NCBI GenBank assembly: GCA_028554795.2
Contig: CM068825.1
Span: 156,813,553-156,877,552, forward strand
Reading direction: 5' to 3'
Length of the DNA: 64,000 nt
DNA from: Sinohyriopsis cumingii
Lineage: Eukaryota > Mollusca > Bivalvia > Unionida > Unionidae
Part shown: positions 11,635 to 28,401 of the stretch, piece after piece
Layout of the letters: the number at the start of each line of letters is the position of its first letter
Numbering within the stretch: position 1 is the stretch's first letter
The notes under the pieces: generated by a model
The model's input: only the letters and a program-made list of their open reading frames with translations
What the model was told of the DNA's origin: nothing
Databases searched by the model: none
Made by a program: the position numbers and the translations under genes

Positions 11635-11650
11635 GGCCCTGAAAAGGGCC
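11635..11650 (-). terminator. Histone-type 3' stem-loop (accessory gene 1)
   Basis: The minus strand reads GGCCCTTTTCAGGGCC, a perfect 6-bp stem with a 4-base loop equal to the animal replication-dependent histone mRNA 3' consensus. It lies 23 bases after the stop of the gene at 11,673-12,062. About 13 bases further downstream is CGAAAAGAGAT, a purine-rich stretch like the histone downstream element that pairs with U7 snRNA. Confidence 0.85.
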
Positions 11651-11672
11651 TTTGGGTTTTCTTCTTCTGCTT

Positions 11673-12062
11673 CTAATTTCTTCTTTTTCTCCACCAAGTT
11701 CTTATTTTATCTCCAACACTCTTTCTCTTCTTCTCTTTCTTTTCCTCCTGCTCTTCTTTCTTCTTCTTCTCTTCCTCCTCTTCTTTCTTCCTCTTCTCAT
11801 TTTCTTCTTCTTTTTCAATCTTTTCGTTCCATTTGCTTATTCTTATTCTTTCCTCTTCATCCTCCTTCTCCTCCTTTATCTCTTTCATGACACCACTAAT
11901 CTTGTCCTTTACCTTTTTTAAGTTATTAATTTCCATCTTTACACGATGGGGACTATAGGAATAATGGTCTTCAACCAGTCTTATTAACATCTGCTCCATC
12001 ATTCCTAAGTTGTCTAAAACGTCTTGTAATGTTTGTATTTTGTCCATTTGGTTAGAAGCCAT
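11673..12062 (-). CDS. Polinton accessory coiled-coil protein 1 (129 aa)
   Basis: I do not recognise a function. Residues 1-60 look helical with regular leucines, and residues 60-115 are almost only E, K and R, giving a long charged helix. The tail is basic (RTWWRKRRN). The ATG at 12,062 follows a TATA-like AGTATAAG near 12,112-12,120 and the shared 29-bp upstream motif at 12,123-12,151. A histone-type stem-loop follows the stop by 23 bases, inside the TIR. The gene is one of three similar cassettes on this arm and probably a paralogue of the genes at 12,820 and 13,692. The product may be a scaffold or nucleic-acid-binding accessory protein, which is inference. Confidence 0.7.
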   Translation of the reverse strand: MASNQMDKIQTLQDVLDNLGMMEQMLIRLVEDHYSYSPHRVKMEINNLKKVKDKISGVMKEIKEEKEDEEERIRISKWNEKIEKEEENEKRKKEEEEEKKKKEEQEEKKEKKRKSVGDKIRTWWRKRRN

Positions 12063-12122
12063 CTTCTTTTTTTATTCTTTGCTGAATGGTTTGAACGACG
12101 AATACTATGGGTTCTTATACTT

Positions 12123-12151
12123 AAAGCGCGTACGTGAAGGAAAACATCCCC
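12123..12151 (-). promoter_or_regulatory. Shared 29-bp upstream motif, copy 1
   Basis: The minus strand begins GGGGATGTTTTCCTTCACG and continues through a GCGC core to CTTT. The same motif sits at 13,256-13,284 and 14,112-14,140, each just upstream of an accessory gene, with extra copies at 12,191-12,220 and (degenerate) 13,327-13,350. It ends a few bases before a TATA-like box, so it is probably a promoter-proximal factor site. Confidence 0.75.
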
Positions 12152-12190
12152 ATAAAACGTAAAATTGATCTTACCTAGATCATGACCAAA

Positions 12191-12220
12191 CAACGCGCGA
12201 ACGTGAAGGAAAACATCCCC
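12191..12220 (-). promoter_or_regulatory. Shared upstream motif, distal copy
   Basis: Second copy of the 29-bp motif, about 70 bp upstream of copy 1. The spacer contains GATCTTACCTAGATCATGACC, also found between the two copies upstream of accessory gene 2. It differs from copy 1 at a few positions of the GCGC core. Confidence 0.6.
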
Positions 12221-12224
12221 CTAC

Positions 12225-12670
12225 TTTTTCATTTCATATAATAAAACCCAAACTATACTTTTTTCATTTCATATAATAAAAACCCAAACTATACTCTCCA
12301 CATACGCTAAGAAACAATAAACAAAATCCATAATCTACTATCCACACAATCTTACGTGAGCGCTTACAAAACCCAAACTATACTCTTCACATACGCTAAG
12401 AACAATAAACAAATCCATAATCTACTATTCACACAATCGTACGTGAGCGGGTACAAACACAAACACAAACACACAAACACAAACACACAAACACATACGC
12501 TAAGAACAATAAACTAATCCATAATCTACTATCCACACAATCGTACGTGAGCGCTTACAGAACCCTAACTATACTCTTCACCTACGCTAAGAAACAATAA
12601 AGAAACCCATAATCTACTATTCCCACAAACATACCTGAGCTCTTACAAGCACCAACACACAAACACATAC
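12225..12670. repeat. Degenerate tandem repeat between accessory genes 1 and 2
   Basis: About four to five units of 75-90 bp containing CATACGCTAAGAACAATAAA, then AATCTACTATCCACACAATC and ACGTGAGCG. A (CACAAA)n patch interrupts it at 12,455-12,495. Parts of the unit recur once upstream of accessory gene 2 (13,400-13,560). No coding sequence. Confidence 0.7.
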
Positions 12671-12769
12671 CCTCACACTATCTTAAAAAAGAGTTAGTGT
12701 TTATAATCACACTACTCTACCTACACACATTGGCAAATCGATCGTTATTTCTTTTCTAGAGTATTGGAT

Positions 12770-12785
12770 AGCCCTGAAAAGGGCT
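12770..12785 (-). terminator. Histone-type 3' stem-loop (accessory gene 2)
   Basis: The minus strand reads AGCCCTTTTCAGGGCT, a perfect 6-bp stem with TTTC loop. It is compensated at both stem ends compared with the copy at 11,635, so base pairing is conserved while sequence changes. It is followed downstream by CTAGAAAAGAAATAACG, a histone-downstream-element-like purine tract. Confidence 0.85.
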
Positions 12786-12819
12786 GTTTTGTTTTGTTTG
12801 GAACTTCATGGACACCTGG

Positions 12820-13194
12820 TTAATGGTGGCACCTTCCAGGCCTGGCGCCGCATACACATCTTATCCCCCAATTACTTTTTACCTTTTGAGGGGAGAGAGC
12901 AGAGGCAGGATATGTCGCTTCAGAATCCCAATTTTCGCTCTCTGGGATTCTGAAATTTCTTCTTCTTCTCTCCTTTTCCTCCTCCTCCTCTTCTTTGCAT
13001 CTTCTCTCCTCCTCTTTGTATCTTCTTTCCTCTTCTTTATATCTTCTCTCCTCCTCTTCTTTGTTTCTTCTTTCCTCCTCCTCTCTTATCCTTCCCTCCT
13101 CCACAATGGCTTCCGCGGCCAGTTCATTTAATATGCGCCTGGCATATTCCAGATGCACATGAAGTTCCAACAGTTTCTCCAGTCTCGTGTTCAT
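12820..13194 (-). CDS. Polinton accessory coiled-coil protein 2 (124 aa)
   Basis: Function not recognised. Residues 1-30 (LEKLLELHVHLEYARRIL) form a leucine-rich helix similar to the start of the protein at 13,692. Residues 33-80 are imperfect repeats of REEEERRYK type, a charged single helix or coiled coil. The C-terminal 45 residues lose this bias and contain CVCGARPGRC. The ATG at 13,194 follows a TATA box (CTATAAATTG, minus, near 13,245-13,254) and the shared motif at 13,256-13,284. The stop is followed 34 bases later by a histone-type stem-loop. Confidence 0.7.
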   Translation of the reverse strand: MNTRLEKLLELHVHLEYARRILNELAAEAIVEEGRIREEEERRNKEEEERRYKEEERRYKEEERRCKEEEEEEKERRRRNFRIPESENWDSEATYPASALSPQKVKSNWGIRCVCGARPGRCHH

Positions 13195-13255
13195 TTTTGG
13201 TGTTGATCAATCAACAAGGGTAGCTGGACTGCCGAACGAGTTTCAATTTATAGTG

Positions 13256-13284
13256 AAAGCGCGGACGTGAACGAAAACATCCCC
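13256..13284 (-). promoter_or_regulatory. Shared 29-bp upstream motif, copy 2
   Basis: Same motif as at 12,123, with one change (TTCGTTCACG). It abuts a clear TATA box (minus CTATAAATTG), and the gene start is about 60 bp downstream. A degenerate extra copy is at 13,327-13,350. Confidence 0.75.
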
Positions 13285-13647
13285 TAAAAACATAAAATTG
13301 ATCTTACCTACATCATGACCATAAAACAACGCGCGGACCTAAAAGAAACACTCACTCACTTTTTATGCTACCCATCACTATTTTAAAATTTTTTATAAAT
13401 CACTTCAATAGACTATCCACATACGCAAAGCAATCCAATCTAACCCCAAATTTACACCTCAAACACCAAAAAAAAAAGACATCATTTTAATCTACTATCC
13501 ATACCAACTTACTTAACCACTTACAAACACAAACACACAAACACATACCCTCACATTTTTTTAAAAAAGAGTTAGTGTTTATTTTCACACTACTCTACCT
13601 ACACACATTGGCAAATCGATTGTTATTTCTTTTCTAGAGTATTGGGT

Positions 13648-13663
13648 AGCCCTGAAAAGGGCT
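13648..13663 (-). terminator. Histone-type 3' stem-loop (accessory gene 3)
   Basis: The minus strand reads AGCCCTTTTCAGGGCT, identical to the loop at 12,770. The downstream sequence (CTAGAAAAGAAATAACAATC) is also nearly identical, so the 3' cassettes of accessory genes 2 and 3 share a recent common origin. Confidence 0.85.
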
Positions 13664-13691
13664 GTTTTTTTTGTTTGCTATGGCATTCTTT

Positions 13692-14048
13692 TTAGTTTCT
13701 AAGAATGCGATGTCCTCTGAGGATAGACTTTCTGGCGATAGGTCTGCTTCTTCGGAAAGAGAAGAAGAACTCTTTGGTGTCGATACGACAATCGACAAAG
13801 CCTCTGTCAGCTTCAGGTTGCTGCTGCTGCTCTTGTTGTTGTTGTTGCTGCTGTCTCTGAAGTCTGTACTTCTCTGTCCATTCTTCTTTTTCCCTGTTCA
13901 TTTCTTCTCTGAAGAGCTCTTCTATCAGGTCTTCAGTGATTTTTAACATTCTCACATTCTCTATTTCTTCTGGCTTCGGTATCAGACTGTGTCTGACCCT
14001 ATGCAAATTCACGTAGGCTTCGTTGAGTTTAGCTAGTTTGGAGCACAT
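13692..14048 (-). CDS. Polinton accessory protein 3 with polyglutamine (118 aa)
   Basis: Function not recognised. The first in-frame ATG is at 14,048 (MCSKLAKLNEAYVNLHRV). The N-terminal pattern L-x-K-L-x-E-x-x-V-x-L resembles accessory protein 2. A helix with KEEWTEKYRLQRQ is followed by two glutamine runs, then a basic tail (RRSRPIARKSILRG). The shared motif lies at 14,112-14,140. The TATA position is weak (CTTTTAGAAC). A histone-type stem-loop follows the stop by 28 bases. Confidence 0.65.
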   Translation of the reverse strand: MCSKLAKLNEAYVNLHRVRHSLIPKPEEIENVRMLKITEDLIEELFREEMNREKEEWTEKYRLQRQQQQQQQEQQQQPEADRGFVDCRIDTKEFFFSFRRSRPIARKSILRGHRILRN

Positions 14049-14111
14049 CTTCTTAGGAGGATGAGTCGACAATGGATGGTTAGACTGGAAACTGCCCCGG
14101 TTCTAAAAGTC

Positions 14112-14140
14112 AAAGCGCGGACGTGAAGGAAAACATCCCC
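14112..14140 (-). promoter_or_regulatory. Shared 29-bp upstream motif, copy 3
   Basis: Nearly identical to the copies at 12,123 and 13,256 and 64 bp upstream of the start codon of accessory gene 3. Only one full copy is present here. Confidence 0.75.
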
Positions 14141-14239
14141 CACACGGTTTTTGAGTCGCAACGTTCAGTGAGTGTCATGAGAGGGATAGTAAGAAATGAA
14201 AGAGCATCAATCCAACATTCTTATAGCTAAACAAAAGAC

Positions 14240-14440
14240 AAAGGCATTTTTTTTCAAAACACAACATTTTTTATTCAAAAATCACTTAACACTAAACAAC
14301 AACTCTAACATTTTTAACAATAATCCAACAATATAACATCAAACAATTTTTTCAAAACACAACATTTTTTATTCAAAAATCACTTAACACTAAACAACAA
14401 CAACTCTAACATTTTTTAACAACAATGCAACACTAAAAGT
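14240..14440 (-). terminator. Duplicated 3' region with two AATAAA signals for the capsid block
   Basis: Two tandem copies of an about 100-bp unit (CAAAACACAACATTTTTTATTC) follow the major capsid gene. On the minus strand each gives AATAAA (14,270-14,275 and 14,368-14,373), a canonical poly(A) signal. The capsid transcripts are therefore probably polyadenylated, unlike the accessory genes. Confidence 0.65.
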
Positions 14441-14481
14441 TTCTCCACTAGGTAAAGAGGGATAACAGTCTTCCATGGTTT

Positions 14482-15795
14482 CTAGTAATCTAGGATGACT
14501 TCTCTCAAACTGTTGATTTCTATGGTATTATCGAATTCTGCATACAGGATGACGTTCACCGTTTCATCAGGGTCTCGGTCTTTAAACTGAATTTCCACAC
14601 GAATCTGGCCGGATTTTATAGGGTGGAAATGTCCCTCGTCGCTGCCTTGGTCTGGAGTGAAATCGAAAGCCCACAAAGCGTAGCCTCCTGCATAATCCTC
14701 GTACGTAATACCGTGACTGGTATTGGTTCCTAACTGTCCGGTGGCTTCGTACAGGGACAAGTACGATCTCAAGTAATTCTTCTTGGTAAAGTCAGGTTCG
14801 AAAGGTCGGGTACACAAGGTCTTGCCATCGCGACTGACTTCGATTTTGGACACACCAAAGTGTTGAAAGTAGAAAGGATTTTTTTCGGCAGCTCCGTTGA
14901 AGGCTGTATTCTCGACGATACCAACGATCAAACGTTTGGGTAACTGTCCTTGGAACAGATAATCTTCGATCATGGATCGCTGTCCCTTGGGAATGGTGAA
15001 GGTTTTCACTTCCACGCGCCGTATGGGATACTTGGCGGTCGTTCTGCTCAACGTCTGACTGATGTCGTTTCCCACTTTAGGTAACACTTCCACACGGCGT
15101 ACGTAGAGTCTGGCTTCTAGGATTTTGGTTTTGTAACCGTCACTATCAGCCATCAAATGGAAAGCGGCACTGCTACGATTCAGTCTCAGGCGGACATCCA
15201 CCCCGTTCAGCAAATACTTTTCTTGCAACCACATGTCCAAATGCAAACGATCCATCAGTTCTAAACTTGTGTCGGCTCCCGTGATTCTCTTTCTTCGTTC
15301 TACAAATCCATCATTGTTGTCTTTCTTTTCATCAGTTTCCAATATTTCAAACTTGGTAGGTTCGTCAGCTTCCCATACCACACAGGCATTGAGATGAGTG
15401 TTCTTGGCATCTATTCCGTACGTCAAGAGATTTTCCAGGTAGGCACGATAAGGGTAAGTATCCATGCTGCTACTGACCAGTTTGTTATTCAAGTACAAGT
15501 CCACTCCACTGAACAAGGAATGCATGAAATTGTTGACGGGAGCTACTGCTTCATCGTCTATAGCACCTCCAGTCTTATCTAGAATTTTGACTTTCAGGTA
15601 CAAGTAACTGCTATTCAGATCGATGTAATCTTCGGGCTGTCCTTTGATTTCAAACTCGATGGGAGCGGAATCGGTCAGTGAGGAGACGGGGTGAAATTCC
15701 ACCCACTGGGATTCTTGCATCGTCATCATCGTGGGGGGCATGGCAAACAGATCCAGTTCCGTCTTGGAACAAGCGCAAGACTCTCGGTGCATCAT
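14482..15795 (-). CDS. Polinton major capsid protein (double jelly roll), about 437 aa
   Basis: The sequence matches the major capsid family of Polintons/polintoviruses: a virion-shell protein, predicted double jelly roll, forming pseudo-hexameric capsomers. Recognisable stretches are WVEFHPVSSLTDSAPIEFEI, DYIDLNSSYLYLKVKI, NNFMHSLFSGVDLYLNNKLV, YPYRAYLENLLTYG and a C-terminal HPIKSGQIRVEIQF. The open frame runs upstream to a TTG at 15,816, but the first ATG is at 15,795, 18 bases after the preceding stop, and is preferred. A possible TATA box (CTATAAATGCC, minus) is at 15,951-15,961 inside the upstream gene. No internal lesion is seen. Confidence 0.92.
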   Translation of the reverse strand: MMHRESCACSKTELDLFAMPPTMMTMQESQWVEFHPVSSLTDSAPIEFEIKGQPEDYIDLNSSYLYLKVKILDKTGGAIDDEAVAPVNNFMHSLFSGVDLYLNNKLVSSSMDTYPYRAYLENLLTYGIDAKNTHLNACVVWEADEPTKFEILETDEKKDNNDGFVERRKRITGADTSLELMDRLHLDMWLQEKYLLNGVDVRLRLNRSSAAFHLMADSDGYKTKILEARLYVRRVEVLPKVGNDISQTLSRTTAKYPIRRVEVKTFTIPKGQRSMIEDYLFQGQLPKRLIVGIVENTAFNGAAEKNPFYFQHFGVSKIEVSRDGKTLCTRPFEPDFTKKNYLRSYLSLYEATGQLGTNTSHGITYEDYAGGYALWAFDFTPDQGSDEGHFHPIKSGQIRVEIQFKDRDPDETVNVILYAEFDNTIEINSLREVILDY

Positions 15796-15812
15796 TTTTT
15801 TTGTCTCTTTTC

Positions 15813-16229
15813 TCAATAATCGAAAACGTCTAAGTCTCGAACGGTTCTTCTTTTCTTGGCCTTTCTCGCTTGAAGTCTGGTGAAAGGGTGTTTTCTTCGT
15901 CGTCTCTTTCTGCCTTGTCCTTGCTGAATGCCTGATTCGGTAGCGTGCAGGGCATTTATAGGTGTTTCTCGTTGGCCTAAAATGTCTTTGCCCGTTTGCA
16001 GCAAGACATTTTTGCCTGCCCTCATGAAGGCTTCTTTAGGGTTTTGTTTGTCGATGATGACATTTTGGAGAAATTCTTTGCCTTGTGTCAGTGCCGCATC
16101 TTTCAAGGCGTGCAATCCGCGTGTCACCATCGGTTTCAACACCGGGGCCACCGAACGAAAGGCCGATTTTAACATATCTCCTAAGCCGTGTCCTCGCTGT
16201 CGAGCAACCCCTCGGTACACTGGATACAT
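15813..16229 (-). CDS. Basic virion core/minor capsid-like protein (138 aa)
   Basis: A small basic protein between penton-like and major capsid genes. Residues 14-60 (RGHGLGDMLKSAFRSV and on) can form amphipathic helices, and residues 105-130 are strongly basic (GRKRRRRKH, ARKAKKRR). This resembles adenovirus pVI/pX-type minor proteins and similar proteins of polintoviruses and adintoviruses, but I cannot assign the exact family. Likely roles are DNA condensation or membrane action in the virion. It starts 7 bases after the penton-like gene stop. A TATA box (CTATAAAAGGA, minus) lies at 16,321-16,331. Confidence 0.7.
   Translation of the reverse strand: MYPVYRGVARQRGHGLGDMLKSAFRSVAPVLKPMVTRGLHALKDAALTQGKEFLQNVIIDKQNPKEAFMRAGKNVLLQTGKDILGQRETPINALHATESGIQQGQGRKRRRRKHPFTRLQARKAKKRRTVRDLDVFDY
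15951..15961 (-). promoter_or_regulatory. TATA box candidate for major capsid gene
   Basis: The minus strand reads CTATAAATGCC inside the core-protein frame, about 155 bp upstream of the major capsid ATG. It is one of several TATA matches placed before individual genes of the block. Confidence 0.4.
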
Positions 16230-16236
16230 GACTTAC

Positions 16237-17160
16237 TTACGAGTCGTGAGAGAACCGTTTTCGAAAATGGAGTTTCACCGTGACTTTTCCTTTGGTGAAT
16301 GGAATATTTTGTCCCAAATCTCCTTTTATAGCAATGTTGACCGTGTCCAAATACGACTTGCTGACCGGCAAATAGTGAGGATGTACAAATTCGCGGTGGA
16401 CGTGGTAAGTGTTTCCACCTTCCTCGTCAGCGTTCGTGGCAGAATCCACTTTGAAAGGAATGACACGCAGTAACGGTACGGAGGTGTGTCCCACCACGTT
16501 GTACTCCACCACATCGGAATACACAAACATCAAATTCAGTCCTTGGTTCAGTTCTACCGGGGCACGAAATAACTTGCTAAAAGACTCGTTGTCGTAAACG
16601 ATGGGTAATTCGGTTTTCTTGATCATGGCCTTTCTCATGTCCATGTCACCGCCCAACATGTCAAACAATTCAGGACAAAATAAAATGGACAGGATTTTAC
16701 TTCGTTCAAATTTCATCAAGAAGCGACGAGCTGCTTTGTGGTACTCCATGGTGACATTTTTGTTGACATGCTCCAAAGCTTTCAGAAACACGGTATTAAA
16801 CCTGGAGGTTATGGTGCTAACCAAATGTTGACCACTAAAATAATAGCCTGGGGGAATGAACAAGTGATAGGTGGTGTACTTTTGTGTACGGGTTTTCTTG
16901 TCATATTTGACATTGCTATCCATCCACTGTTGCATTTGCTCGTCATGAACTTCCACATCAAAAAAATTTTGATTGGGAAGGACATTGAGGACTTGGGTCG
17001 GGTGAATCATTTCTACTAAAGCCACTTCCCAATGGGCTTCGTGATCTAACTAGATGGCTTGAGGTAATTTGGCCGTGTAACAGCACAACGTGTTCTTGGG
17101 AAACACCTCCATGGAACTGTCACTGGGTAAGGTTAAGTAAAATTGGTTTTGGTGACACAT
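16237..17160 (-). pseudogene. Penton-like minor capsid protein with in-frame TAG
   Basis: The minor capsid (penton-like, single jelly roll) gene of Polintons. The natural start is the ATG at 17,160, because the first codons carry the family N-terminal pattern (FYLTLPSDSSMEVFP). Codon 37 is TAG at 17,050-17,052, after which the same frame runs open to 16,237 with the conserved WEVALVEMIHPTQ and a C-terminal GKVTVKLHFRKR. The total is 307 codons. The stop sits in the conserved N-terminal strand region. A downstream ATG at 17,025 would lose the first strand. Nonsense mutation, readthrough or assembly error are possible, and a mutation is most likely. Confidence 0.85.
16321..16331 (-). promoter_or_regulatory. 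TATA box candidate for basic core protein gene
   Basis: The minus strand reads CTATAAAAGGA, about 95 bp upstream of the ATG at 16,229 and within the penton-like coding sequence. Confidence 0.45.
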
Positions 17161-17573
17161 AATTCCAGAGTTCTGTGGCTGTCCGAGGGGTTACTGGACG
17201 TCAGAGGAGTGTCTCCGTCTAAAATGGGGTTCTGGTTGTGATTGAAGTGGTGACTGGCACTGGCACTGGACACAAGGTTCCCGGGGTTCCCGTTCGAGGT
17301 GAATTTCAGGGAGGGATTAGGAAGCAGGTAACCGATGCAACTGCTCAATAAAATGGTCCACAATTGTTTGTCTCCTTGTTGCAAACTCAAATTGGCGATG
17401 GCTGCCCCGATGACACAATACACCACGAAGATTTGGCAGAAAAAGACGATTTGCGTTTTAGGCACACGTTCTCCACACCACACCCACAAGGGTTGTTTTT
17501 GTAAATCTTGCACAGAAGAACTAGGTGAAGGAGGAGTGGTCGACGTAGCTGCGTCTGCTGTGTGAAAGGGCAT
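17133..17573 (-). CDS. Polinton conserved small membrane protein (146 aa)
   Basis: Two hydrophobic segments, around residues 45-65 (IVFFCQIFVVYCVIGAAIANL) and 72-90 (LWTILLSSCIGYLLPNPSLK), follow a proline/serine-rich head. Proteins with this GERVPKTQIVFF and IGYLLPNP pattern recur in animal Mavericks, but their role is unknown. Membrane anchoring during virion assembly or entry is inference. The first ATG (17,573) is 5 bases after the integrase stop. The 3' end overlaps the penton-like start by 28 bases. A TATA box (CTATAAAAA, minus) is at 17,586-17,594. Confidence 0.7.
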   Translation of the reverse strand: MPFHTADAATSTTPPSPSSSVQDLQKQPLWVWCGERVPKTQIVFFCQIFVVYCVIGAAIANLSLQQGDKQLWTILLSSCIGYLLPNPSLKFTSNGNPGNLVSSASASHHFNHNQNPILDGDTPLTSSNPSDSHRTLELCVTKTNFT

Positions 17574-17578
17574 GATGG

Positions 17579-18688
17579 TCACTTCTTTTTATAGTCGATG
17601 ACTTGCGAAGCGTCGATCCAAGAATCGAAACTGGGTGGATATCCTTTCCAACGTACTTTGACTTCTTTGACACGTCGTTTGCCCACTTTACGGGTTCTGC
17701 GTTCGAGAATGCTTTCGATGTCGTACACGTCGTCTTCTTTTTTGCTGACACGTTGTAACTCGGGCAAATAAAACGTTCCTTTGAGCACTTCTCCGTTCAT
17801 GTCTTCTAATTTATAGACGGCAGGATGACGGCCATGCACTCGTCCAGTGACGCGAAACAATTCGGTCGTCCAGTTAGGTAAGTAACCTTTGTCGAAAGTG
17901 CGTTTGGTTTTGCCAATGCGCACCCAATCTCCTACGGCCAACTCTCCACTTTTCTTGGGGACAGCCCTCGTCGGGGACGTACCAAACAGGTGCTCAAACA
18001 CCAACACTTCGTTGTCGGGAGTCACGTCTTGCGGGGCACGTCCGATGCTTCGATGGTAAGATTGGTTGTACGCTTGCACCAGGTGCGGTAAGATGTCGAT
18101 GTACTTCAGAGTGTGGTGATGCGTAAAATATTTCCACATGCGTTCTTTCAAAGTGCGTTGAAAACGTTCCACGATGCTGGCTTTGGTTTCGGGATTCTCG
18201 GTGGTAAAAAAATGAATGTCACGTTTCTTTAATTCTTTTTGGAAAGCTTGGTTCAGAAATTCGGTGCCTTTGTCCGTTTGCCATCGAAGAGGGTGACGAC
18301 CGCTTTGTTTCAACACCCGTTGCAGGGCTCGCACTAACTCGCTGCTCGATTTGGAAGTCAAGGGCACGACCCAGGCAAATTTGGAAAAGACGTCGTTGAC
18401 ACAAAACAAATATTTGTAGCCACGATTGTAGCTGGCCAAATGAGAGACATCGGCTAAATCGGCTTGCCATTGATGATCGATGCCTTCCACTCGGGTGCGA
18501 CTTCTGGCAAACTTGAGTCGAATGGGTTTGTGTAAAGTGTAGGTAGCTTGTTCTTGTAACCATCGTTGCACTTGAGGTAAACGGAGACTTTTCAGTCGCG
18601 TTTTGGCAGCACGATACAATTTTTGAACTCCTGCGTAACCTGCAGGATGTGAGGGATCGTAGTAAATGCTGGCTAAGACTTTTTCCAT
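17579..18688 (-). CDS. Polinton integrase with C-terminal chromodomain (369 aa)
   Basis: Retroviral-type DDE integrase that inserts the linear element DNA and makes the 6-bp duplication. Catalytic residues are visible: D77 (WQADLADVS), D139 (RWQTDKGTEF) and E174 (ASIVERFQRTL), a D-x35-E spacing. An SH3-like region (about 245-310, VGDWVRIGKTKRTFDKGYLPNW) is followed by a chromodomain at about 321-366 (YDIESILERR, VRWKGYPPSFDSWI). Chromodomains read methylated histone tails, so insertion may be guided to heterochromatin, which is inference. The frame is intact. The ATG at 18,688 is 21 bases after the preceding stop. Confidence 0.95.
   Translation of the reverse strand: MEKVLASIYYDPSHPAGYAGVQKLYRAAKTRLKSLRLPQVQRWLQEQATYTLHKPIRLKFARSRTRVEGIDHQWQADLADVSHLASYNRGYKYLFCVNDVFSKFAWVVPLTSKSSSELVRALQRVLKQSGRHPLRWQTDKGTEFLNQAFQKELKKRDIHFFTTENPETKASIVERFQRTLKERMWKYFTHHHTLKYIDILPHLVQAYNQSYHRSIGRAPQDVTPDNEVLVFEHLFGTSPTRAVPKKSGELAVGDWVRIGKTKRTFDKGYLPNWTTELFRVTGRVHGRHPAVYKLEDMNGEVLKGTFYLPELQRVSKKEDDVYDIESILERRTRKVGKRRVKEVKVRWKGYPPSFDSWIDASQVIDYKKK
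17586..17594 (-). promoter_or_regulatory. TATA box candidate for membrane/penton-like genes
   Basis: The minus strand reads CTATAAAAA inside the last codons of the integrase, just upstream of the membrane-protein ATG at 17,573. It is close enough that transcripts might start at or after that ATG and serve mainly the penton-like gene. Confidence 0.4.
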
Positions 18689-18709
18689 TTTTTTGTGTTG
18701 ATTGGTGTG

Positions 18710-20815: not shown

Positions 20816-21559
20816 TTATGGGGAGTGAAATGAAGTCGAGGACGGAGACGTGTACAGGACAGGCCCTCCGTCTTGGCACCAGTGGTGAAACAAGTGGGTA
20901 CGAAATCGCAAATCCTCGGGAGTCGTAGGTTTCAAATCGACGAGTAAATAGGCGTGTGGTGTTTGAGTGGCATCGTCGTACGCCTGAGTCAGCCAAGGCG
21001 TTCCTAACTGTTTGGCTAAGACTTGCACTTGCGATTTATCTCGAGGGCTTTTAAACAAGACCACGTAATGCGCATTGAGACTGATGGTGCGATGGGGTTT
21101 ACTTTGTTGAAACAAATTTTGGGTGATGTAAACGACACTGGCATTACGGTGATGCCCTTTGCGCGTGAACCACAGTTTAATTTCTTCTTCGTCTTCTCCT
21201 AACATGTCGTCGAAAATGACCAAATGGGTTAGACGGGAGTCAGAGACGATGCCGTCGTCTTCTTTAGGAATGCCTTCCACAAACACGATGGAATCGCCTT
21301 GACTTTCTCGCAAGAGGCTGTACGCCGATTGCCACTCTTTGTAACACCACACGATTCGTTGAGGGGGTCGATCGATCAAATGATGTTTATGTTCGATCAA
21401 ACGTTTGACGAATTCGGTTTTGCCTGAACCGCTAGGTCCAGCAATGAGCATGTTAAAGGGATGGCGAAGATACAAAGCCTCCCAACTGGCACGATCTAAG
21501 TGTTCGTCGATGACTTTGACAGTAGAGGAAGAGGGAGCAGAGACAGCAGAGGTAGCCAT
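20816..21559 (-). CDS. Polinton A32-type DNA-packaging ATPase (247 aa)
   Basis: FtsK/HerA-superfamily ATPase that powers genome packaging into the capsid. With the start at 21,559 the Walker A motif GPSGSGKT is at residues 41-48 and Walker B (THLVIFDDML) around 113-120, followed by the sensor region (ASVVYITQNLF). The open frame extends to 21,598, but the ATG at 21,559 is preferred because a TATA box at 21,607-21,614 would put the transcript start near 21,580. It is the first gene of the minus-strand capsid block. The frame is intact. Confidence 0.93.
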   Translation of the reverse strand: MATSAVSAPSSSTVKVIDEHLDRASWEALYLRHPFNMLIAGPSGSGKTEFVKRLIEHKHHLIDRPPQRIVWCYKEWQSAYSLLRESQGDSIVFVEGIPKEDDGIVSDSRLTHLVIFDDMLGEDEEEIKLWFTRKGHHRNASVVYITQNLFQQSKPHRTISLNAHYVVLFKSPRDKSQVQVLAKQLGTPWLTQAYDDATQTPHAYLLVDLKPTTPEDLRFRTHLFHHWCQDGGPVLYTSPSSTSFHSP

Positions 21560-21606
21560 GGTGTGAGAAATGTCACTTGTGACACGAAAAACAAACAAGA
21601 CAAGAG

Positions 21607-21614
21607 TTTATATA
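21607..21614 (-). promoter_or_regulatory. TATA box of the ATPase gene
   Basis: The minus strand reads TATATAAA, 48 bp before the ATG at 21,559, just below the AATAAA of the polymerase unit. Confidence 0.65.
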
Positions 21615-21629
21615 CTTTTTCAGAACACG

Positions 21630-21635
21630 TTTATT
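21630..21635 (-). terminator. AATAAA poly(A) signal of the polymerase unit
   Basis: The minus strand reads AATAAA 8 bases after the stop of the membrane protein gene (21,643). It separates the polymerase transcription unit from the ATPase/capsid block. Confidence 0.65.
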
Positions 21636-21642
21636 GAATGTT

Positions 21643-21993
21643 TCAAACATAAATACGAAAGACAAAAATGCATAAAAGCCAAAGGCTTAAGTACAAGAAT
21701 AAAAGGCACATGATAACCATGAACGTGGAATAAAAACAAGTGTCTGTACAACAACCACATGTTCTGGGTAAAGTTGTAACCAGTTCTATAGTAGGGGGTA
21801 AGGTCACACAAGTGTCCTCCCGAAAGGGTCTTTCAGGCCTGTCCACGACAGTCGTGTCCTGGGTGACGGGTTCTTCTGGCACCGTCACTAACACAGGTTG
21901 AAAAGTAACTTTTTTCCTTGAATAACTCTCGTGCATACTGGGCCACCTCTTGTGTCCAAGCCTCAAAACCCTGGTCTCGGTGATGTCCAACAT
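21643..21993 (-). CDS. Small C-terminally anchored membrane protein (116 aa)
   Basis: Function not recognised. From the first ATG (21,993) the protein has a hydrophilic head with many V, T and P residues, a CGCC motif, and one C-terminal membrane segment (about residues 90-114, FMVIMCLLFLYLSLWLLCIF). The same frame is open upstream to about 22,070, overlapping the polymerase end, but lacks an ATG there. It could be expressed from the polymerase transcript. A virion or membrane role is inference. Confidence 0.5.
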   Translation of the reverse strand: MLDITETRVLRLGHKRWPSMHESYSRKKVTFQPVLVTVPEEPVTQDTTVVDRPERPFREDTCVTLPPTIELVTTLPRTCGCCTDTCFYSTFMVIMCLLFLYLSLWLLCIFVFRIYV

Positions 21994-22060
21994 TTGACTC
22001 CTAACCAATCTGGTTTCTTCTTCGTCAACGACATGGTAAGTTACTTCAATGAACAATGAA

Positions 22061-25000
22061 CTATCGATCTTGCCTAGGGTTCCTTTTCATATACAGACCA
22101 ATACCGACGTGACCGTACGGTAAGGTGAAGTGATTGGGAAGTCGCACTCGCTTCTGGTATACAATTTGATAGACTTTTTCCAAGGGTCGACTGACGATGT
22201 GGTGAGTGGGTAAACGTACAATCTTGTTCGGTTGATAGGTGGTCACTTTAAAGTTTCCATCCTCTCCCGATTGCAAGGCTTCTTTCAATACCCCAAAGTT
22301 GACCACTCGACTGGTACGATGATTCAGAGTCAGTCCTTTCACTTTGCACGTCGTGTGCACTTCTCCTTGTTTGTCACGGTATTCGTAGCCGTAATTTTTG
22401 GGACCACCACTGACGAAACTTAGAATCTTGTCGTCGGGATGCTCGTCTGTCCAGGCTCCTAAACGGTCTCCTTCGATGTCAGGGTGCTGTTGAATCGGGT
22501 GATGGATGTAAATGCAACTGTCCGTGTCAAAGTACAGGACGCGTTCTTCTAACAGTTCTAAAGCTTCGTACAATTTTAAGCGAGCATGAGCTGTCACGTA
22601 AGCCGCAATGATGACATTTCCAAAAGGGTCGTCTTGTACAAAGTCCAGATACTTCTTCGTAATTGACCAAGATCAAATTCTCTCGAACGACGTCCACGTG
22701 TTTCATGTATTTGGTTTTGTCGTGAATCATCTGGAAGTAGCGTGAAGGTTCTGTCAAATATTCCGTCTTGGGTAAACACGGTCGTTGTGCCATTTTACCC
22801 CACAAGCAATTTAACATCACTTTGGCAAACGATCGCCTGCCTTCGTTTTTTTCGATGTGGTCTAAAGAGATGCCTTCTTGTGCGTAGTATTTCTCTTTGA
22901 ATTGTATTTGGTCTTCGGGAGTGTGACACCAGGAAGGATAGCCGCTGGCTTCTTGTTTCAGTTTCAAAAAGGCATCCACGTAGTCGGCGAAAATGCCTTT
23001 CTGAGTAGGGTCACCCTTGTGGTACTGTTGTGTCTTGGGAAAGTGGCAAATTTCGTACACTTCTAACAGTTGGTATCCCATGTCCAGAGCTTTGAACAAT
23101 TCCACGCTGACCCAGGTTCCCGTCAAGGCACGTTCTTCCTGGCTGTGATGGCAAGGCTGGTCCTGGTTGCACGTTTCGGCACAAGTACGGCACAAGGGAA
23201 ACATCAGTTTGCCTTGACAATGGTGAGGTAAGACGGGATGGTATAGGTTCGTGGGAGGCAAAACTTTACACTTGATCAAGCCTTCGTATTGTCGAATGTT
23301 TTTCAGGTCAATGTGTTCCGTCAACAATTGCGGGTGCCCTACAGGAAAGCGACAATATTTGCACACGTAGGGATACAGCGAACACACGTCCAAGTATTTG
23401 ATTTCTTCTCCTTTCTCTTCGTCGGCTTGGTACAGCAAACAGGTGGCATTGGTCCTTCCTCCGTACAAACTATCCCTCGGGTTCAGCGGGTCCATGAACT
23501 GGTAACTTTCCACGAGGCGTTTAAACTCGGGATCGGTTTTCAAACGGTGATTGTACTCGTGTTCCCACATTTCCACCACTTGGTATCCTTGCTGTTCTAA
23601 CTTTAGGCGTCGCTGACAAGTGTCCTGGTACAAGTCTTCCATGGTTCGTTGCAAAAACTGATTTTAGTGTCACGGTCAGGGTAACAGACGGGACATCCGT
23701 GAAATAAGCAACCGTTAAACTCGTACACGATCTTGGGGTTTTCTAAGTCCCAGCCATCTACCGAATACGTTCCGATGGTCTTTTCGCCTCCTCCGTTGCG
23801 GGCATGCTGAATCCATTTGTCTTCCTTGTCGCACAAGTAATGTAACCAACGTAGGGCTTTGACCGAGTATTGACGCTTGACATAGTGGGTCGTTTGAGGA
23901 CTGATGACAGCCACGGTGTTTTCAGGCATGAATCGTTGGCGGTACACTAAGGAACACGCTTTGGCAATGGTGCAAGCTTCTTTCAAAGGATCGACCCCTC
24001 CGTGTTCCATGAACAGTTCTCGAAATTTTCCACAGCAACGTCGTAAAATGTCCACGTCGGAACGACAATACTTTAGCATTTCTTCCTGAAAGTCGAAAGG
24101 GTCGGAGGCATGAGCCTGGTACCAAGCGTAGAAAGCTTCTCGTTGTTCGGTACGCATGTTGTCGGGGTCGTAATAGTGAGCCTCAGGCAAATGGGGTAGA
24201 ACGGCATGTTGATTGGCTTCCGTATTGAAAAAGTGTGGAAAGTACCCTTTAGCCATTTCTGTCATTCCAAACGTTTTAGGCATTCGACTCAAAGGCATGG
24301 CCAAGTAACTCATCGAATCTTTAAACTGTACTTGTCCCACTTGCATGAAAATGATTTTGGCTCCGTTCAAAGTGACTTTAGGACGCTCGGTGCCTTGTTC
24401 CGCATAGTACCTCAAAAGAAACTGTCCATCGTATCCGGAGAAATTGTGAGCCATCACCGTGGCATGACGATGACAATCTCCGTAACGTTCGATGTCCTCT
24501 TGGCTCCACGTCTTGTCGATGGGGTCTAAGAGCCATTGGGCAAAATCGGCTAACGTGTTTGGTTCCCGAAAGATTTTTTCACGCCCTCCGGGAATCTTGC
24601 TGCAGTGAGGTCAATGACTGAAGATAGGTTCTTGAATGCACTTCTCGCACGCTCGATGAGCCACGCAGAAATTAGGAATGTGAATGCCGGTCTCTTGCAT
24701 ACATTCGAAATCGAAAAAGATGAAATTGCCTTTCTTCTTGTGACCGTCCTCTTTCTCTGGTGGGGGTTGGTATTTTTGCACGTAGCATTGGTGTTCCAAG
24801 TCCACGATGCGGTGACAAATGTGACATTTTTTTTTTCCTGAACATACGTATGCCTTGGTACTATTGGTACGTATGCCTTGTCTACACGTAGGGCACAATC
24901 TCAAGAGTTGACAAACACATTTCTGCTGTGAACCTTGCGTCTTCAGATGTTGTTGGTAACAGGTAGGACTGACAAACGTGCGCAAACAAGTCGAACAAGG

Positions 25001-26122
25001 CACTGGTCCTTCGCTCAGACAGGGTGGAGAGGCCAAACATCCTGGGCATTTCATTCCACAATGCTTGTGTTGCTCTCGATTGTTATAACCATAGTCACAT
25101 TTCTCACAATAATAACTGTATCCCAGGAATCCAGTGATACTGGTAATGGTATCGAAATGGTCATCGTGATGATAGACATGAATGTATTTTCCGTCCTTAA
25201 AATCTTGGCCTCGAAACAACAGAGTTCCACGCATTTCTTGAGGGTGCACTTTCAAGGTGTAGCGTGGAGCTAGGGCATCTTGCAATTTTTGCATCTCAGG
25301 AATGCCACAGGGTGTGTCTTTGGACAGTCCGGCTTGTTGTAACAGGAGTTCTGCTTCGTTTCGTTGTTTGGCTCGATCGCATCGTTGAATAGTTTTCCAG
25401 GTTCTTCTCCATTCTACCGTGTCGTTCTTGTTGGCATTGGTTCGTCCCACCACGATGGCACGGGCTAAACTCATCTGGTCTTGAGGGTTGTTAATTCGGA
25501 CGAGACTCTTTTTGGTGTTGCGAAGGTCGTCCACCAATAACATCTTTTTGCATCCAGTTCCTTGAGGAGGAGAGACGTGGGCCATTTTCAGTGTGGCTTT
25601 ACCATCGGTGATGTCAAACTGGTCATTAGATTGTTGCACCTGTTGTATCTTGTCCATGACTTTGGAAGGGGTCAGTTCTGCGGGTCTGCTAAACTCGATC
25701 CAAACAGGGGATTTCAAACCGTCGTGATCTATGGATAGTGTCAAGCGATCGTCTTCTTTGGCTTGACATTGTCGCTTGAGTGCGGTGAGCAAAGAATCCC
25801 ACATCTCGGTGATAAACCCTTCTGCTTTCTCCAAGGGTACGTCGGCCTTGGAATCTTTAAACTTCACCGTGTAGGTGTAAGCCGTGGTTCTAAATTTTCT
25901 AGAGGAGCGCTTTTCCGTCTCTCGAATGGAATAGTACTTTTCAGGGTTGACTAAGGGTGGTGAACTTGGTTTAGAGGGTTCGGATTCTGGTTCACTCATG
26001 TCCTCTTCAAAATCACTGGCATGAATTTGTGCCAAGATTTCAGCCCTGGTACGAGGCGATAGATCACGTTTCTGCCTCTTACTTTCTTCTTCTTTCTTCT
26101 CGAATGATAAGGATCGTTTCAT
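22061..26122 (-). pseudogene. Protein-primed-type DNA polymerase B, disrupted by one stop and two frameshifts
   Basis: Replicative polymerase of the element. From the ATG at 26,122: a lysine-rich head, a conserved N-terminal domain (AELTPSKVMDKIQQVQ), a cysteine/histidine-rich zinc region (about residues 333-460), and ExoI (IFFDFECMQETG). An in-frame TGA follows at 24,611-24,613. The same frame then gives ExoII (AHNFSGYDGQFLLRY) and ExoIII (YCRSDVDILRRC). A frameshift near the A5/T5 run at 23,653-23,665 leads to motif A (YLDVCSLYPYVC) and motif B (FAKVMLNCLWGKM). A second frameshift near 22,650-22,660 leads to motif C (YFDTDS). All catalytic motifs survive, so decay is recent. The total is about 1,350 codons, normal for Polintons. 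Confidence 0.95.
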
Positions 26123-26256
26123 CTTGAGTGAAAATCGTCAAATGACTCAAGTTTAAACACCATAGACTAATTTATAGTCATGGCAGGCCAGCGTATATAA
26201 AAGGGTGTGTGTCTTGTCCTTTCACTATTCATTTCACTCTCAAGCTGAGCACAACG
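26123..26256. promoter_or_regulatory. Bidirectional promoter between polymerase B and zinc-knuckle gene
   Basis: Two TATA boxes face outward within 134 bp. On the minus strand CTATAAATTAG (26,167-26,177) serves polymerase. On the plus strand TATATAAAAG (26,194-26,203) serves the zinc-knuckle gene. The boxes are only about 17 bp apart. Confidence 0.7.
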
Positions 26257-26725
26257 ATGGAAGAGACTACCCAGATGGAACGTTTCGTCAGAGCTTTGCG
26301 AGGGGTCATTAGAAAATTCTCTTCAGACCAGCCGACGGACTACTCTCCTTCCTTTCGAGATAAAAGTCAAGATACTTGCTATATCTGTCAGAAGAAAGGG
26401 CATTGGTCTTCAGAGTGTCCAGACCGTCAAAAAAAAAAAAACAGGGGCTAAAAAAGACAAAAGTCAAGATACCTGTTATTATTGTAAAGAAAAAGGACAT
26501 TGGTCTCCAGATTGCCCAAAAAAGAAACAAGAGGAGTCAGAAGAAAAGAGGGATTCTTCAGAAGAAGAGAGGGATTCTTCGAAAGAAGAGAGGGCTTCTT
26601 CAGAGGAAGAAGAGGAAGAAAGAAGACAATTCTATTTAAAAGAAACAAAGAAACAGGAGAAGAAAAGAAGAAGGGAAGAAAATGAGGAAAAAACGGTGAA
26701 GAAATTGAAAAAACAGAGAGACTAA
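26257..26725 (+). pseudogene. Two-CCHC zinc-knuckle protein, frame broken at an A13 run
   Basis: The first ATG after the TATA box is at 26,257. The first knuckle (CYICQKKGHWSSEC) is followed by a run of 13 A (26,429-26,441), where the frame ends soon after. A different frame continues with a second near-identical knuckle (CYYCKEKGHWSPDC), then DSSEEERDSSKEERASSEEE repeats and a lysine/arginine-rich end at 26,725. CCHC knuckles bind single-stranded nucleic acid. The run may be an indel, a polymerase-slippage site or an assembly error. The gene points away from polymerase B. Confidence 0.7.
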
Positions 26726-26972
26726 ATAAGGAGAAAGAAGAAGTGTAAGAACTTTTTAAAGTGTTCTGTGGTGAATTGTGAATTGGATTGTAAAAAATGG
26801 ATAAAAGAATACATGAATGATATAAGGTAAGTGTCTTTGAGTTTTGATTTTAAAATAAGAAGCTACACTCAAGCACTCATACACAGACACGTACTATAAG
26901 GGTAAAATGGGTGGGGTTTATTTTTGAGTTATTGGCAAATTGAAATTGTATTTCTTTTCGAGAAATGTGGGT
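26726..26972. other. AT-rich spacer between convergent genes
   Basis: No gene seen. AAAATAAGAAGC near 26,852 contains no perfect AATAAA. The GGTGGGG-TTATTTTTGAG patch precedes the stem-loop region of the minus-strand neighbour. Confidence 0.4.
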
Positions 26973-26988
26973 GGCCCTGAAAAGGGCC
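26973..26988 (-). terminator. Histone-type 3' stem-loop (186-aa gene)
   Basis: The minus strand reads GGCCCTTTTCAGGGCC, perfect, 27 bases after the stop at 27,016. Downstream is TTTCTCGAAAAGAAATAC, again like a histone downstream element. Confidence 0.85.
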
Positions 26989-27015
26989 TTTTTTCTTTAT
27001 GGTGTAGGAGTGAGT

Positions 27016-27576
27016 TTAACCAATCAACTTTAACTGCCTTAAGCCTTTGCCACGGCCAAGGCCTACTTCTGATGATTGGGTTGAAATCACTAAGGGTGGT
27101 ACGACAGGCTTAGTCACAGGGTTGGCGGGTTTAGCTCGGGAAGGTCGTATTCTCTTCGGTCGTGATAAAGAAGTCTGATACATTTGTTTCAGACTTCTTA
27201 ACTCCGCTAAAATGTCCAACAGTACCGTAGCCGTTTGATTTTCACCCTCTTGTTTCTTTGCTGCTACTTCTTCTTGCTGTTGTTGCTGTTGTTTTTTTCT
27301 TACCTCTTCTTGTTGCTGTTGCTGTTGCTGTAGGAGAAAAGCTTGTTCCGCTTCCTTTTGTCGTTGCATAAATTTCTCCAGTTCTTCTTTCTGTCTCTGT
27401 CTAAAATTCTCCACTTGCGGTAATGAAGAAGGTAACGAAGGTTCCGGAACAAATTCTTGCGAGGCAAGAAAATCCACAAAATCCCAATGTACCTCTTCTG
27501 AAAGTAAGTCCGGGTTCCCTTGGGCAGTCTCCCCTGCTGGTGCACCCCAATGGATCGTTTTCTGAGTTTCCGTCAT
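27016..27576 (-). CDS. Polinton glutamine-rich coiled-coil accessory protein (186 aa)
   Basis: Function not recognised. The head is acidic (LLSEEVHWDFVDFLASQEF). A central helix (FRQRQKEELEKFMQRQKEAEQ) leads into two Q runs of seven with EEV spacers. A short leucine helix (LLDILAELRSLKQMY) is followed by a basic proline-rich end. The ATG at 27,576 lies below TATATAGATT (minus, about 27,621-27,630). A histone-type stem-loop terminates the transcript. Remains of a similar coiled coil plus stem-loop are seen in the decayed Polinton near 47,650-48,050. Confidence 0.7.
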   Translation of the reverse strand: MTETQKTIHWGAPAGETAQGNPDLLSEEVHWDFVDFLASQEFVPEPSLPSSLPQVENFRQRQKEELEKFMQRQKEAEQAFLLQQQQQQQEEVRKKQQQQQQEEVAAKKQEGENQTATVLLDILAELRSLKQMYQTSLSRPKRIRPSRAKPANPVTKPVVPPLVISTQSSEVGLGRGKGLRQLKLIG

Positions 27577-27795
27577 GTTGAATCACTGTCGCATAGATTG
27601 ACTGCACACAAGCGCTAACGAATCTATATAGACCACGTGACGTCACAGACTGCTCTCTTCGGATTGGATGCGAGCTGACTGAATTTTGTAACGCGTGTTC
27701 GGATTGGTGAATGAATTCAATCCGTTTCAATCCTTCCTGTACCTATAAATAAGCGCAGTTCACTGCATTGATTCACTTGTTCTCGTCGCTTCAAG
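27577..27795. promoter_or_regulatory. Divergent promoter with CRE and E-box
   Basis: A consensus cAMP-response element TGACGTCA (27,638-27,645) overlaps an E-box CACGTG (27,634-27,639). A minus-strand TATATA (27,625-27,630) serves the 186-aa gene. A plus-strand TATAAATA (27,744-27,751) serves the 77-aa gene. Factor binding is inferred from consensus only. A CACGT core is also present in the shared left-arm motif. Confidence 0.6.
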
Positions 27796-28029
27796 ATGTG
27801 GACCGATGTGCAATCTTCTACGCTTGTGTCTTCCATGATGTTTAGGACGGACATGCTCATGTATGTCCGATCCAAGTGGACCATTGTCCACAGGACAAAC
27901 ACCAGCCTGTGGATACGTAGGATCTACGTTGAAAGACAAGGATGCCTGAAAAGAGTGCTGATTTACGGACCAACAGTGAGACGTAGCCTAAGGACAAGAA
28001 GAAGACCAATGCGGTACCATTTATGTTAA
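27796..28029 (+). CDS. Polinton terminal accessory protein, basic (77 aa)
   Basis: Function not recognised. The ATG at 27,796 lies about 45 bp after a TATA box (27,744-27,751). The protein is arginine-rich (RRIYVERQGCLKRV, RRSLRTRRRPMR), with several methionines and a short hydrophobic patch. It ends 24 bases before a perfect histone-type stem-loop in the right TIR, mirroring accessory gene 1 at the left end. The length, basic character and stem-loop together recall a small histone-like transcript, but there is no histone fold. Confidence 0.6.
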   Translation: MWTDVQSSTLVSSMMFRTDMLMYVRSKWTIVHRTNTSLWIRRIYVERQGCLKRVLIYGPTVRRSLRTRRRPMRYHLC

Positions 28030-28044
28030 TGAATACATTAACAT

Positions 28045-28401
28045 AAACCCAAAGGCCCTTTTCAGGGCCAGCCATATTTCTCGAAAAGAGATAGCCTTTC
28101 CATTGCCTACCCCTTTTTTAAATTTAAATTTAAATTTAAATTTTAAAAAAAAAATCCCAATAGCACGAACTCTATTCCCCATGTTAATTTCCCCTTGTCG
28201 CTAGACAGACCCACACTATAGTTCCATGTTAAATTCCCCTTGTCGCTAGAGTGACCCACGATTTATTCCCATGTTAATTTCCCTTGTCGCTAATCTGACC
28301 CACGATTTTTCGCCATGTTAAATTTCCATTGTCACTAATCTGACCCAGGGGTCTCTGTAATGCTAATTCCCATCGTCGCTAATCTCACCCCATTTACTAC
28401 T
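28045..28401. repeat. Right terminal inverted repeat of the Polinton
   Basis: Inverted match to 11,304-11,659: stem-loop at the inner edge, CATTGCCTACCCC, AAATTT block, five 45-bp units, and the end CCCCATTTACTACT at 28,401. A few substitutions and small indels separate the arms. Confidence 0.95.
28054..28069 (+). terminator. Histone-type 3' stem-loop (77-aa gene)
   Basis: The plus strand reads GGCCCTTTTCAGGGCC, followed by ACC-like AGCC and then CGAAAAGAGAT about 13 bases downstream. It is identical to the left-TIR copy because both lie inside the inverted repeat. Confidence 0.85.

What the first reader, a model, noticed from the sequence alone, without database searches (positions are those of the whole stretch)
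11635..28069. Polinton accessory genes end in histone-type stem-loops
Five small genes of one Polinton (stem-loops at 11,635, 12,770, 13,648, 26,973 and 28,054) are each followed within 23-34 bases by a 16-nt hairpin identical to the replication-dependent histone mRNA 3' consensus. A purine-rich CGAAAAGA/AGAAAAGA tract follows 10-18 bases further on, like the U7 target. Two versions differ by compensating changes at the outer stem pair, so structure is selected. Histone mRNAs with this end are made in S phase and lack poly(A). A virus-like element using it could tie accessory gene expression to host DNA replication. I know of no description of this in Polintons.
Basis: partly seen in the sequence, partly recalled or inferred. 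Interest (0 to 1): 0.88.

Follow-up and report, generated by a model that had tools for sequence, protein, structure and literature searches.

The report
Virus-like transposon with histone-type mRNA ends
A virus-like mobile element (a Polinton) in an animal genome ends five small genes with the RNA hairpin and downstream signal normally seen on histone genes, and the same hairpin is kept in many copies of the element, so the element probably borrows the host's histone-mRNA machinery.

Summary
Five histone-type 3' stem-loops lie 22-34 nt after the stops of five small ORFs in a bounded 17,098-bp Polinton, 11304-28401 (TIR about 356 bp, TSD AATATA). Rfam Histone3 finds 5 of 5 at E <= 3.2e-4, three above its cut-off, and no other Histone3 match in the window at E <= 3. 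Two loops are the two TIR copies and two lie in a duplicated unit, so there are three versions.
In the 2.9-Gb host assembly 75 Histone3 matches were scored (a truncated list). I fetched 70: all 70 lie in copies of this Polinton, none beside a core histone gene by tblastn. Among 154 loops counted there, 153 follow one of the five genes on the same strand, and 148 have the purine core AAAGA(G/A/T) 16-17 nt downstream. In a gene E sample, partly chosen by loop score, the loop differs 12-fold less than third codon positions.
Most likely these genes use the host SLBP/U7 route to make histone-like mRNAs without poly(A). Cleavage and S-phase coupling are inferred. Host histone genes, SLBP and U7 could not be checked (searches unanswered). 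The literature searches made found no description of this.

The parts
11304..28401 (.). Polinton element, 17,098 bp, flanked by 6-bp duplication AATATA (11298-11303 and 28402-28407)
   Evidence: core genes
11304..11659 (.). left terminal inverted repeat; its inner edge carries loop A and its purine tract
28045..28401 (.). right terminal inverted repeat; its inner edge carries loop E and its purine tract
11673..12062 (-). gene A, 129 aa, Lys/Glu-rich
11635..11650 (-). stem-loop A (GGCCCTTTTCAGGGCC), then AGCCA and AAAGAG at 11619-11614
12820..13194 (-). gene B, 124 aa, Arg/Glu-rich
12770..12785 (-). stem-loop B (AGCCCTTTTCAGGGCT), then ATCCA and AAAGAA at 12754-12749
13692..14048 (-). gene C, read from the ATG at 14048 (the mechanical ORF starts at 14072 with TTG)
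13648..13663 (-). stem-loop C (AGCCCTTTTCAGGGCT), then ACCCA and AAAGAA at 13632-13627
27016..27576 (-). gene D, 186 aa; 9 relatives in environmental protein sets
26973..26988 (-). stem-loop D (GGCCCTTTTCAGGGCC), then ACCCA and AAAGAA at 26957-26952; best Rfam score in the window, 41.2 bits
27796..28029 (+). gene E, 77 aa, very basic (computed pI 11.6), divergent to gene D
   Evidence: coding constraint
28054..28069 (+). stem-loop E (right TIR copy, GGCCCTTTTCAGGGCC), then AGCCA and AAAGAG at 28085-28090
12126..12151 (-). shared upstream motif GGGGATGTTTTCNTTCACGTNCGCGC starting 89 nt upstream of the gene A ATG; further copies start at 13284 (gene B, 90 nt), 14140 (gene C, 92 nt) and 12220
14482..15816 (-). 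capsid-like protein (predicted double jelly-roll major capsid fold), 444 aa; followed on its strand by AATAAA at 14373 and 14275, no histone loop
17579..18688 (-). integrase (rve) with chromodomain
20816..21598 (-). A32-type packaging ATPase, partial match
22527..26122 (-). DNA polymerase B region, read in three frames in this copy (interrupted)

Best explanation
This Polinton family carries five short genes at its two ends whose pre-mRNAs end in working histone-type 3' signals. Inferred mechanism: host SLBP binds the hairpin, host U7 snRNP pairs with the purine core 16 nt downstream, and the host nuclease cuts about 5 nt after the loop. The mRNAs then end in the loop without poly(A), are exported and translated through SLBP, and are most abundant in S phase, when the host replicates DNA and the element's own polymerase would have nucleotides to work with. 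The core block (PolB, ATPase, integrase, capsid) carries no such loop and probably uses ordinary polyadenylation. Shown here: sequence, position, orientation, spacing, retention in many copies. Inferred: cleavage, lack of poly(A), S-phase timing, the role of the small proteins (gene E could be a basic DNA-condensing protein).
For: Rfam Histone3 at 5 of 5 loops and no other Histone3 match at E <= 3 in the window. Loops follow the stops by 22-34 nt. In the host genome, 70 of 70 fetched of 75 scored Histone3 places lie in copies of this element. In 71 sources 154 loops were counted (at least 13 of 16 bases alike): 153 downstream of gene A-E on the same strand, ACCCA in 119, AAAGA(G/A/T) at +16 in 145 and at +17 in 3. 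Published: purine core AAAGAG of mouse H2a pairs with U7 CUCUUU (PMC7026596, passages); 106 of 154 have exactly AAAGAG. Published cleavage sites are 5 and 7 nt after the stem-loop, at ACCCA and ACCCACA (PMC6303110, passages). Gene E, 17 same-length ORFs: loop pairwise difference 0.022 against 0.269 at third codon positions; third-position excess also in 27 intact ORFs. Loops not used to select the loci, window included: A 2 of 2, E 4 of 4, D 10 of 14, B 9 of 13 have the class sequence. AATAAA within 130 nt after the loop in only 14 of 133, against two AATAAA just after the capsid-like gene in the window.
Against: No RNA data. Host SLBP, U7 and histone genes not seen: those genome searches did not complete. 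The loci were chosen by loop score and loops below 13 of 16 were not counted, which inflates conservation; among unselected loops several are changed or broken, and one gene D copy (L128) has lost its end and loop and was dropped. In the gene E sample the 5 nt after the loop (0.171) and the stretch 16-25 nt after it (0.178) vary far more than the loop, though less than third codon positions. Gene D shows only a small third-position excess among 25 intact ORFs (0.038, 0.040, 0.062). In this copy loops A, B and E are not followed by ACCCA, and loops B and C score below Rfam's cut-off. AATAAA at 13583 and 26922, after loops C and D, would allow polyadenylation. Seven partial contigs of distant Polintons show no loop. 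In the control one of 14 genomes (Lactococcus lactis) also gave a match, below the cut-off.
Confidence: 0.8

Rival explanations
1. The loops form RNA 3' ends through the histone machinery, but S-phase timing is not the point. The element uses them to make compact mRNAs without poly(A), to stop transcription at the TIR edge, or to avoid competition for polyadenylation factors.
For: The TIR copies sit at the inner TIR edge and would end outward transcription from both sides. The genes are short. Same sequence evidence as the main reading.
Against: The internal loops B, C and D are not at the element edge. In animals this signal is tied to S-phase SLBP (recalled).
Confidence: 0.3
2. A host histone 3' end was captured once, duplicated within the element and is carried passively.
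For: The five 3' ends are alike beyond the loop, so they probably share one origin; two pairs arose by TIR copying and by duplication of a unit. The purine stretch and the 5 nt after the loop vary noticeably in the gene E sample.
Against: Loop differences are 12-fold below third codon positions of gene E, in a sample partly chosen by loop score; the outer pair is G-C or A-U in 147 of 154; the purine core spacing is almost constant.
Confidence: 0.07
3. The hairpin is a DNA-level signal of the element (replication, packaging or integration), not an RNA signal.
For: One loop lies in each TIR.
Against: Three of five loops are internal, all five are in sense orientation just after a stop codon, and the downstream purine tract and ACCCA match RNA processing signals.
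Confidence: 0.04
4. Chance hairpins.
For: The bare 16-mer also turns up 101 times in the viral contig collection; reading the printed contexts of these 101 (a few cut short by contig ends) I saw none with the ACCCA plus purine arrangement.
Against: E-values down to 9.6e-9 in the window, and 70 of 70 fetched genome places in the same family.
Confidence: 0.005

Closest known systems
Metazoan replication-dependent histone mRNA 3' ends (Rfam RF00032, SLBP / U7 snRNP route)
   Same: Hairpin, cleavage-site motif, purine-rich downstream element with the AAAGAG core, short genes; a divergent pair (D/E) with TATA-like boxes recalls histone gene pairs (recalled)
   Different: The genes are not recognisable histones and belong to a virus-like transposon. 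[quoted passage not shown]
Polintons / Mavericks and adintoviruses
   Same: PolB, rve integrase with chromodomain, A32-type ATPase, capsid-like fold, TIRs, 6-bp TSD
   Different: Histone-type 3' ends on the accessory genes; none in 7 partial contigs of more distant relatives. 'Histoid' genes reported in adomaviruses (PMC11071296, passages) are histone-like proteins, a different matter.
Mimivirus hairpin rule for polyadenylation (recalled, no call)
   Same: A virus-coded palindrome marks mRNA 3' ends
   Different: As recalled, it leads to polyadenylation and is not the histone consensus

Membership tests
Polinton / Maverick | family B DNA polymerase of the viral/organellar type | tested here: met
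   PF03175 in two frames; interrupted in this copy
Polinton / Maverick | retrovirus-type integrase | tested here: met
   PF00665 plus chromodomain PF00385
Polinton / Maverick | A32-type packaging ATPase | tested here: met
   PF04665, E 1.7e-7, over its cut-off, short best stretch
Polinton / Maverick | double jelly-roll major capsid protein | tested here: met
   predicted fold of moderate confidence (pLDDT 61, pTM 0.69); best Foldseek match E 1.7e-14, a capsid protein
Polinton / Maverick | terminal inverted repeats and 6-bp target duplication | tested here: met
   TIR about 356 bp, AATATA on both sides
Polinton / Maverick | protease and minor capsid protein | not tested
   no such Pfam match among the ORFs given; not pursued
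Histone-type mRNA 3' end | hairpin scoring with the Histone3 model | tested here: met
   3 of 5 over the cut-off, 5 of 5 at E <= 3.2e-4
Histone-type mRNA 3' end | cleavage motif ACCCA after the loop | tested here: met
   119 of 154 loops; in the window 2 of 5 exact (C, D), the others AGCCA or ATCCA
Histone-type mRNA 3' end | purine-rich downstream element able to pair with U7 | tested here: met
   AAAGA(G/A/T) in 148 of 154; pairing inferred from mouse U7 in PMC7026596, host U7 not seen
Histone-type mRNA 3' end | mature mRNA without poly(A), cut after the loop | not testable with these tools
   no RNA data
Histone-type mRNA 3' end | host has SLBP and U7 snRNP and its own histone loops | not tested
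   genome searches for PF15247, RF00066 and PF00125 did not complete (and later repeats)
Replication-dependent histone gene | encodes a histone | tested here: not met
   0 Pfam matches for A, B, C and D (E was not given to that call); no tblastn match to human core histones at 70 of 70 places

The most novel reading that the evidence does not exclude
A lineage of virus-like Polintons has adopted the animal histone mRNA 3'-end system for a regulon of five accessory genes. It makes poly(A)-less, SLBP-dependent mRNAs that rise and fall with host DNA replication. These would be the first protein-coding genes other than histones known to use this end in animals, and the first virus-like element to do so.
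Probability: 0.6. Interest if true: 0.93.

Novelty: new variant of a known kind. Interest (0 to 1): 0.86.

Why it matters
Histone mRNAs are described as the only known animal protein-coding mRNAs that end in a stem-loop in place of poly(A) (PMC6303110, abstract, 2018). A mobile, capsid-coding element with the same ends on several non-histone genes would break that rule. It would show a way to tie a virus-like element to host S phase, and would give natural non-histone substrates for asking what SLBP and U7 require. It could also explain why such transcripts would be missed in poly(A)-selected RNA data. It is directly testable with total RNA of the host species.

Tried and rejected
Chance hairpins: rejected (the simple pattern test is weaker, 1 of 100 shuffles reached the observed count). 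DNA-level TIR signal: rejected because three loops are internal. Scan of viral contigs with the bare 16-mer: 101 stretches, contexts read by eye, none seen with the ACCCA/purine arrangement. A loop-plus-purine pattern gave 0. Integrase and PolB scans of viral contigs gave no relatives. The genome-contig scan gave 7 contaminant contigs with no Histone3 match at E <= 0.01 and no loop by a looser pattern; they are partial, so absence there is weak evidence. The first pair survey counted 175 loop-like hits; 21 copies of one chance match, AGTACTTTTCAGGGTT, were dropped to reach the 154 used. Loops with fewer than 13 of 16 bases alike, or without TTTT, were not counted there. In one search, loops under 12 of 16 were dropped (gene D of L128, whose end is missing), and one gene D row (L114) is the TIR loop read backwards and is left out of D 10 of 14. 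Gene assignment used tblastn at E 0.01 without low-complexity filter, so A/B/C labels of charged genes are loose. PDB sequence searches with two core ORFs found nothing useful.
Full report
What is there. The window holds a bounded Polinton at 11304-28401 (17,098 bp). Its ends start AGTAGTAAAT, with inverted repeats of about 356 bp and the 6-bp duplication AATATA on both sides. By my reading of that alignment the two arms differ by 7 substitutions and one 1-base indel. Core genes on the minus strand: integrase with chromodomain and a Pox_A32-type ATPase, PF03175 DNA polymerase B in more than one frame, and an ORF at 14482-15816 whose predicted model (pLDDT 61, pTM 0.69) matches double jelly-roll capsid proteins (best E 1.7e-14). 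The polymerase is interrupted in this copy. Among the listed relatives that bear an organism's name, those of the integrase come from oysters and lancelets (120 of 2401 listed) and those of the polymerase from a clam, an oyster and an aphid (17 listed). The host is probably a marine invertebrate; it is not identified.

The five stem-loops. Rfam Histone3 matches at 26949-26993, 11610-11655 and 28049-28094 are above the curated cut-off. Those at 13623-13668 and 12745-12790 are below it, with E 6.4e-5 and 3.2e-4. At E <= 3 there is no other Histone3 match in the 64 kb. The loops start 22, 34, 28, 27 and 24 nt after the stops of genes A, B, C, D and E. They are not five independent sites: A and E are the two TIR copies, and B and C lie in a duplicated unit of 185 nt. 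Genes A, B and C also share an upstream motif, GGGGATGTTTTCNTTCACGTNCGCGC, that starts 89-92 nt before their ATG. These three genes thus look like expression cassettes with a common start and a common end.

The host genome. One genome search was answered: the window lies in a 2.90-Gb assembly of 1138 contigs. Of 589,472 candidates 75 were scored, all 75 above the Histone3 cut-off; in the tool's control, 1 of 14 named genomes gave a match, below the cut-off. I fetched 70 of the 75 (30 as L102-L131; 40 as L139-L178). In 70 of 70 the place lies in a copy of this Polinton: 69 show tblastn matches to genes A-E and one (L146) to the capsid-like gene; none matches human H2A, H2B, H3 or H4 (for the first 30). 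One element can hold several places, so 70 places may be fewer than 70 elements, but they lie on many contigs and mostly far apart. The scored list is truncated (the window's own loops are not in it), so this does not say that host histones lack loops. It does say that the best histone-like loops the search reached belong to this element family.

Conservation. In the 70 loci plus the window element (71 sources) there are 154 loops with at least 13 of 16 bases like one of the two class sequences, after dropping 21 chance matches. 153 follow one of genes A-E on the same strand; the remaining one is at the edge of its fetched stretch. Pair 1-16 is G-C in 118 and A-U in 29; the second pair is G-C in 150; the loop bases are TTTC in 149. 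ACCCA follows in 119. The purine core AAAGAG, AAAGAA or AAAGAT starts 16 nt after the loop in 145 and 17 nt after it in 3; 6 have none. These shares are conditional on the counting rule. For gene E an intact ORF was found in 27 of 71 sources (many stretches do not reach the gene), with codon-position differences 0.13, 0.074 and 0.305; 26 of 27 had a loop by the pattern used. In the 17 ORFs of the window's length the loop differs by 0.022 per site against 0.269 at third positions, 0.171 in the 5 nt after the loop and 0.178 in nt 16-25 after it. Gene D: 25 intact ORFs, 22 with a loop, and only a small third-position excess (0.038, 0.040, 0.062). The loci were chosen by loop score, so the fairest numbers are those for loops not used for selection (window included): A 2 of 2, E 4 of 4, D 10 of 14 and B 9 of 13 have the class sequence, with one further gene D (L128) that has lost its end. 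In alignments by gene class the mean majority share is 0.95-1.00 in the loop and 0.93-0.97 in the purine stretch, against 0.84-0.90 upstream (-150 to -60) and 0.53-0.85 at +61 to +110. Gene D has 9 environmental relatives; the 8 I aligned are 69-95% identical to it.

How it most likely works. The order loop, ACCCA, purine core with AAAGAG is that of animal histone pre-mRNA. Cleavage occurs 5 and 7 nt after the loop (PMC6303110, passages), and the purine core AAAGAG pairs with U7 CUCUUU in mouse (PMC7026596, passages). [quoted passage not shown] The simplest reading is that genes A-E are processed by host SLBP and U7 snRNP. Core genes differ: none has a Histone3 match, and the capsid-like gene is followed by two AATAAA. 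Only 14 of 133 loops have an AATAAA within 130 nt downstream. S-phase expression follows from what is known of the pathway but is not shown here.

What stands against it. No RNA evidence. Host histone genes, SLBP and U7 could not be looked up, since the genome tool did not answer those requests. In this copy three of five cleavage motifs are imperfect, and loops C and D have an AATAAA downstream. The purine stretch varies more than the loop. Seven contigs of distant Polintons, contaminants in bacterial bins, hold no Rfam match at E <= 0.01 in 60,413 bases and no loop by a looser pattern. The trait may therefore be confined to one lineage, although those contigs are partial.

Novelty. Full-text searches of the held library found 0 papers with histone stem-loop and Polinton, histone stem-loop and transposable element, histone mRNA with stem-loop and Maverick, adintovirus with Polinton and polyadenylation, or stem-loop binding protein with viral transcripts and histone-like. 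The 13 papers listed for histone stem-loop, virus and SLBP, the 6 and the 20 listed of 45 do not appear to describe it by title and start of abstract; I did not read them beyond that, except passages of PMC11071296. Subscription literature was not searched.

Noticed in passing
window 26257-26740, + strand: A plus-strand gene between the polymerase and gene D encodes a zinc-knuckle (CCHC) motif in the ORF 26257-26451, with a second, repeated motif just after it (read by eye) and a charged tail; the frame is interrupted and no histone loop follows it.
   Followed up: partly
L132-L138: Seven contigs binned as bacterial genomes (among them tubeworm and mussel symbionts) encode Polinton integrase, and 6 of 7 further core Polinton genes; most likely animal or viral DNA contaminating the bins.
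   Followed up: partly
window 30022-31344: Tandem array of a 49-bp unit about 1.6 kb outside the right end of the element.
   Followed up: no
window 12236-12681: Five copies of a 78-nt repeat between genes A and B.
   Followed up: no
window 60301-62754, - strand: Long ORF (817 aa) with helicase-type AAA domains, followed by a 369-aa ORF at 62721-63830; possibly another mobile element.
   Followed up: no
   Followed up: partly
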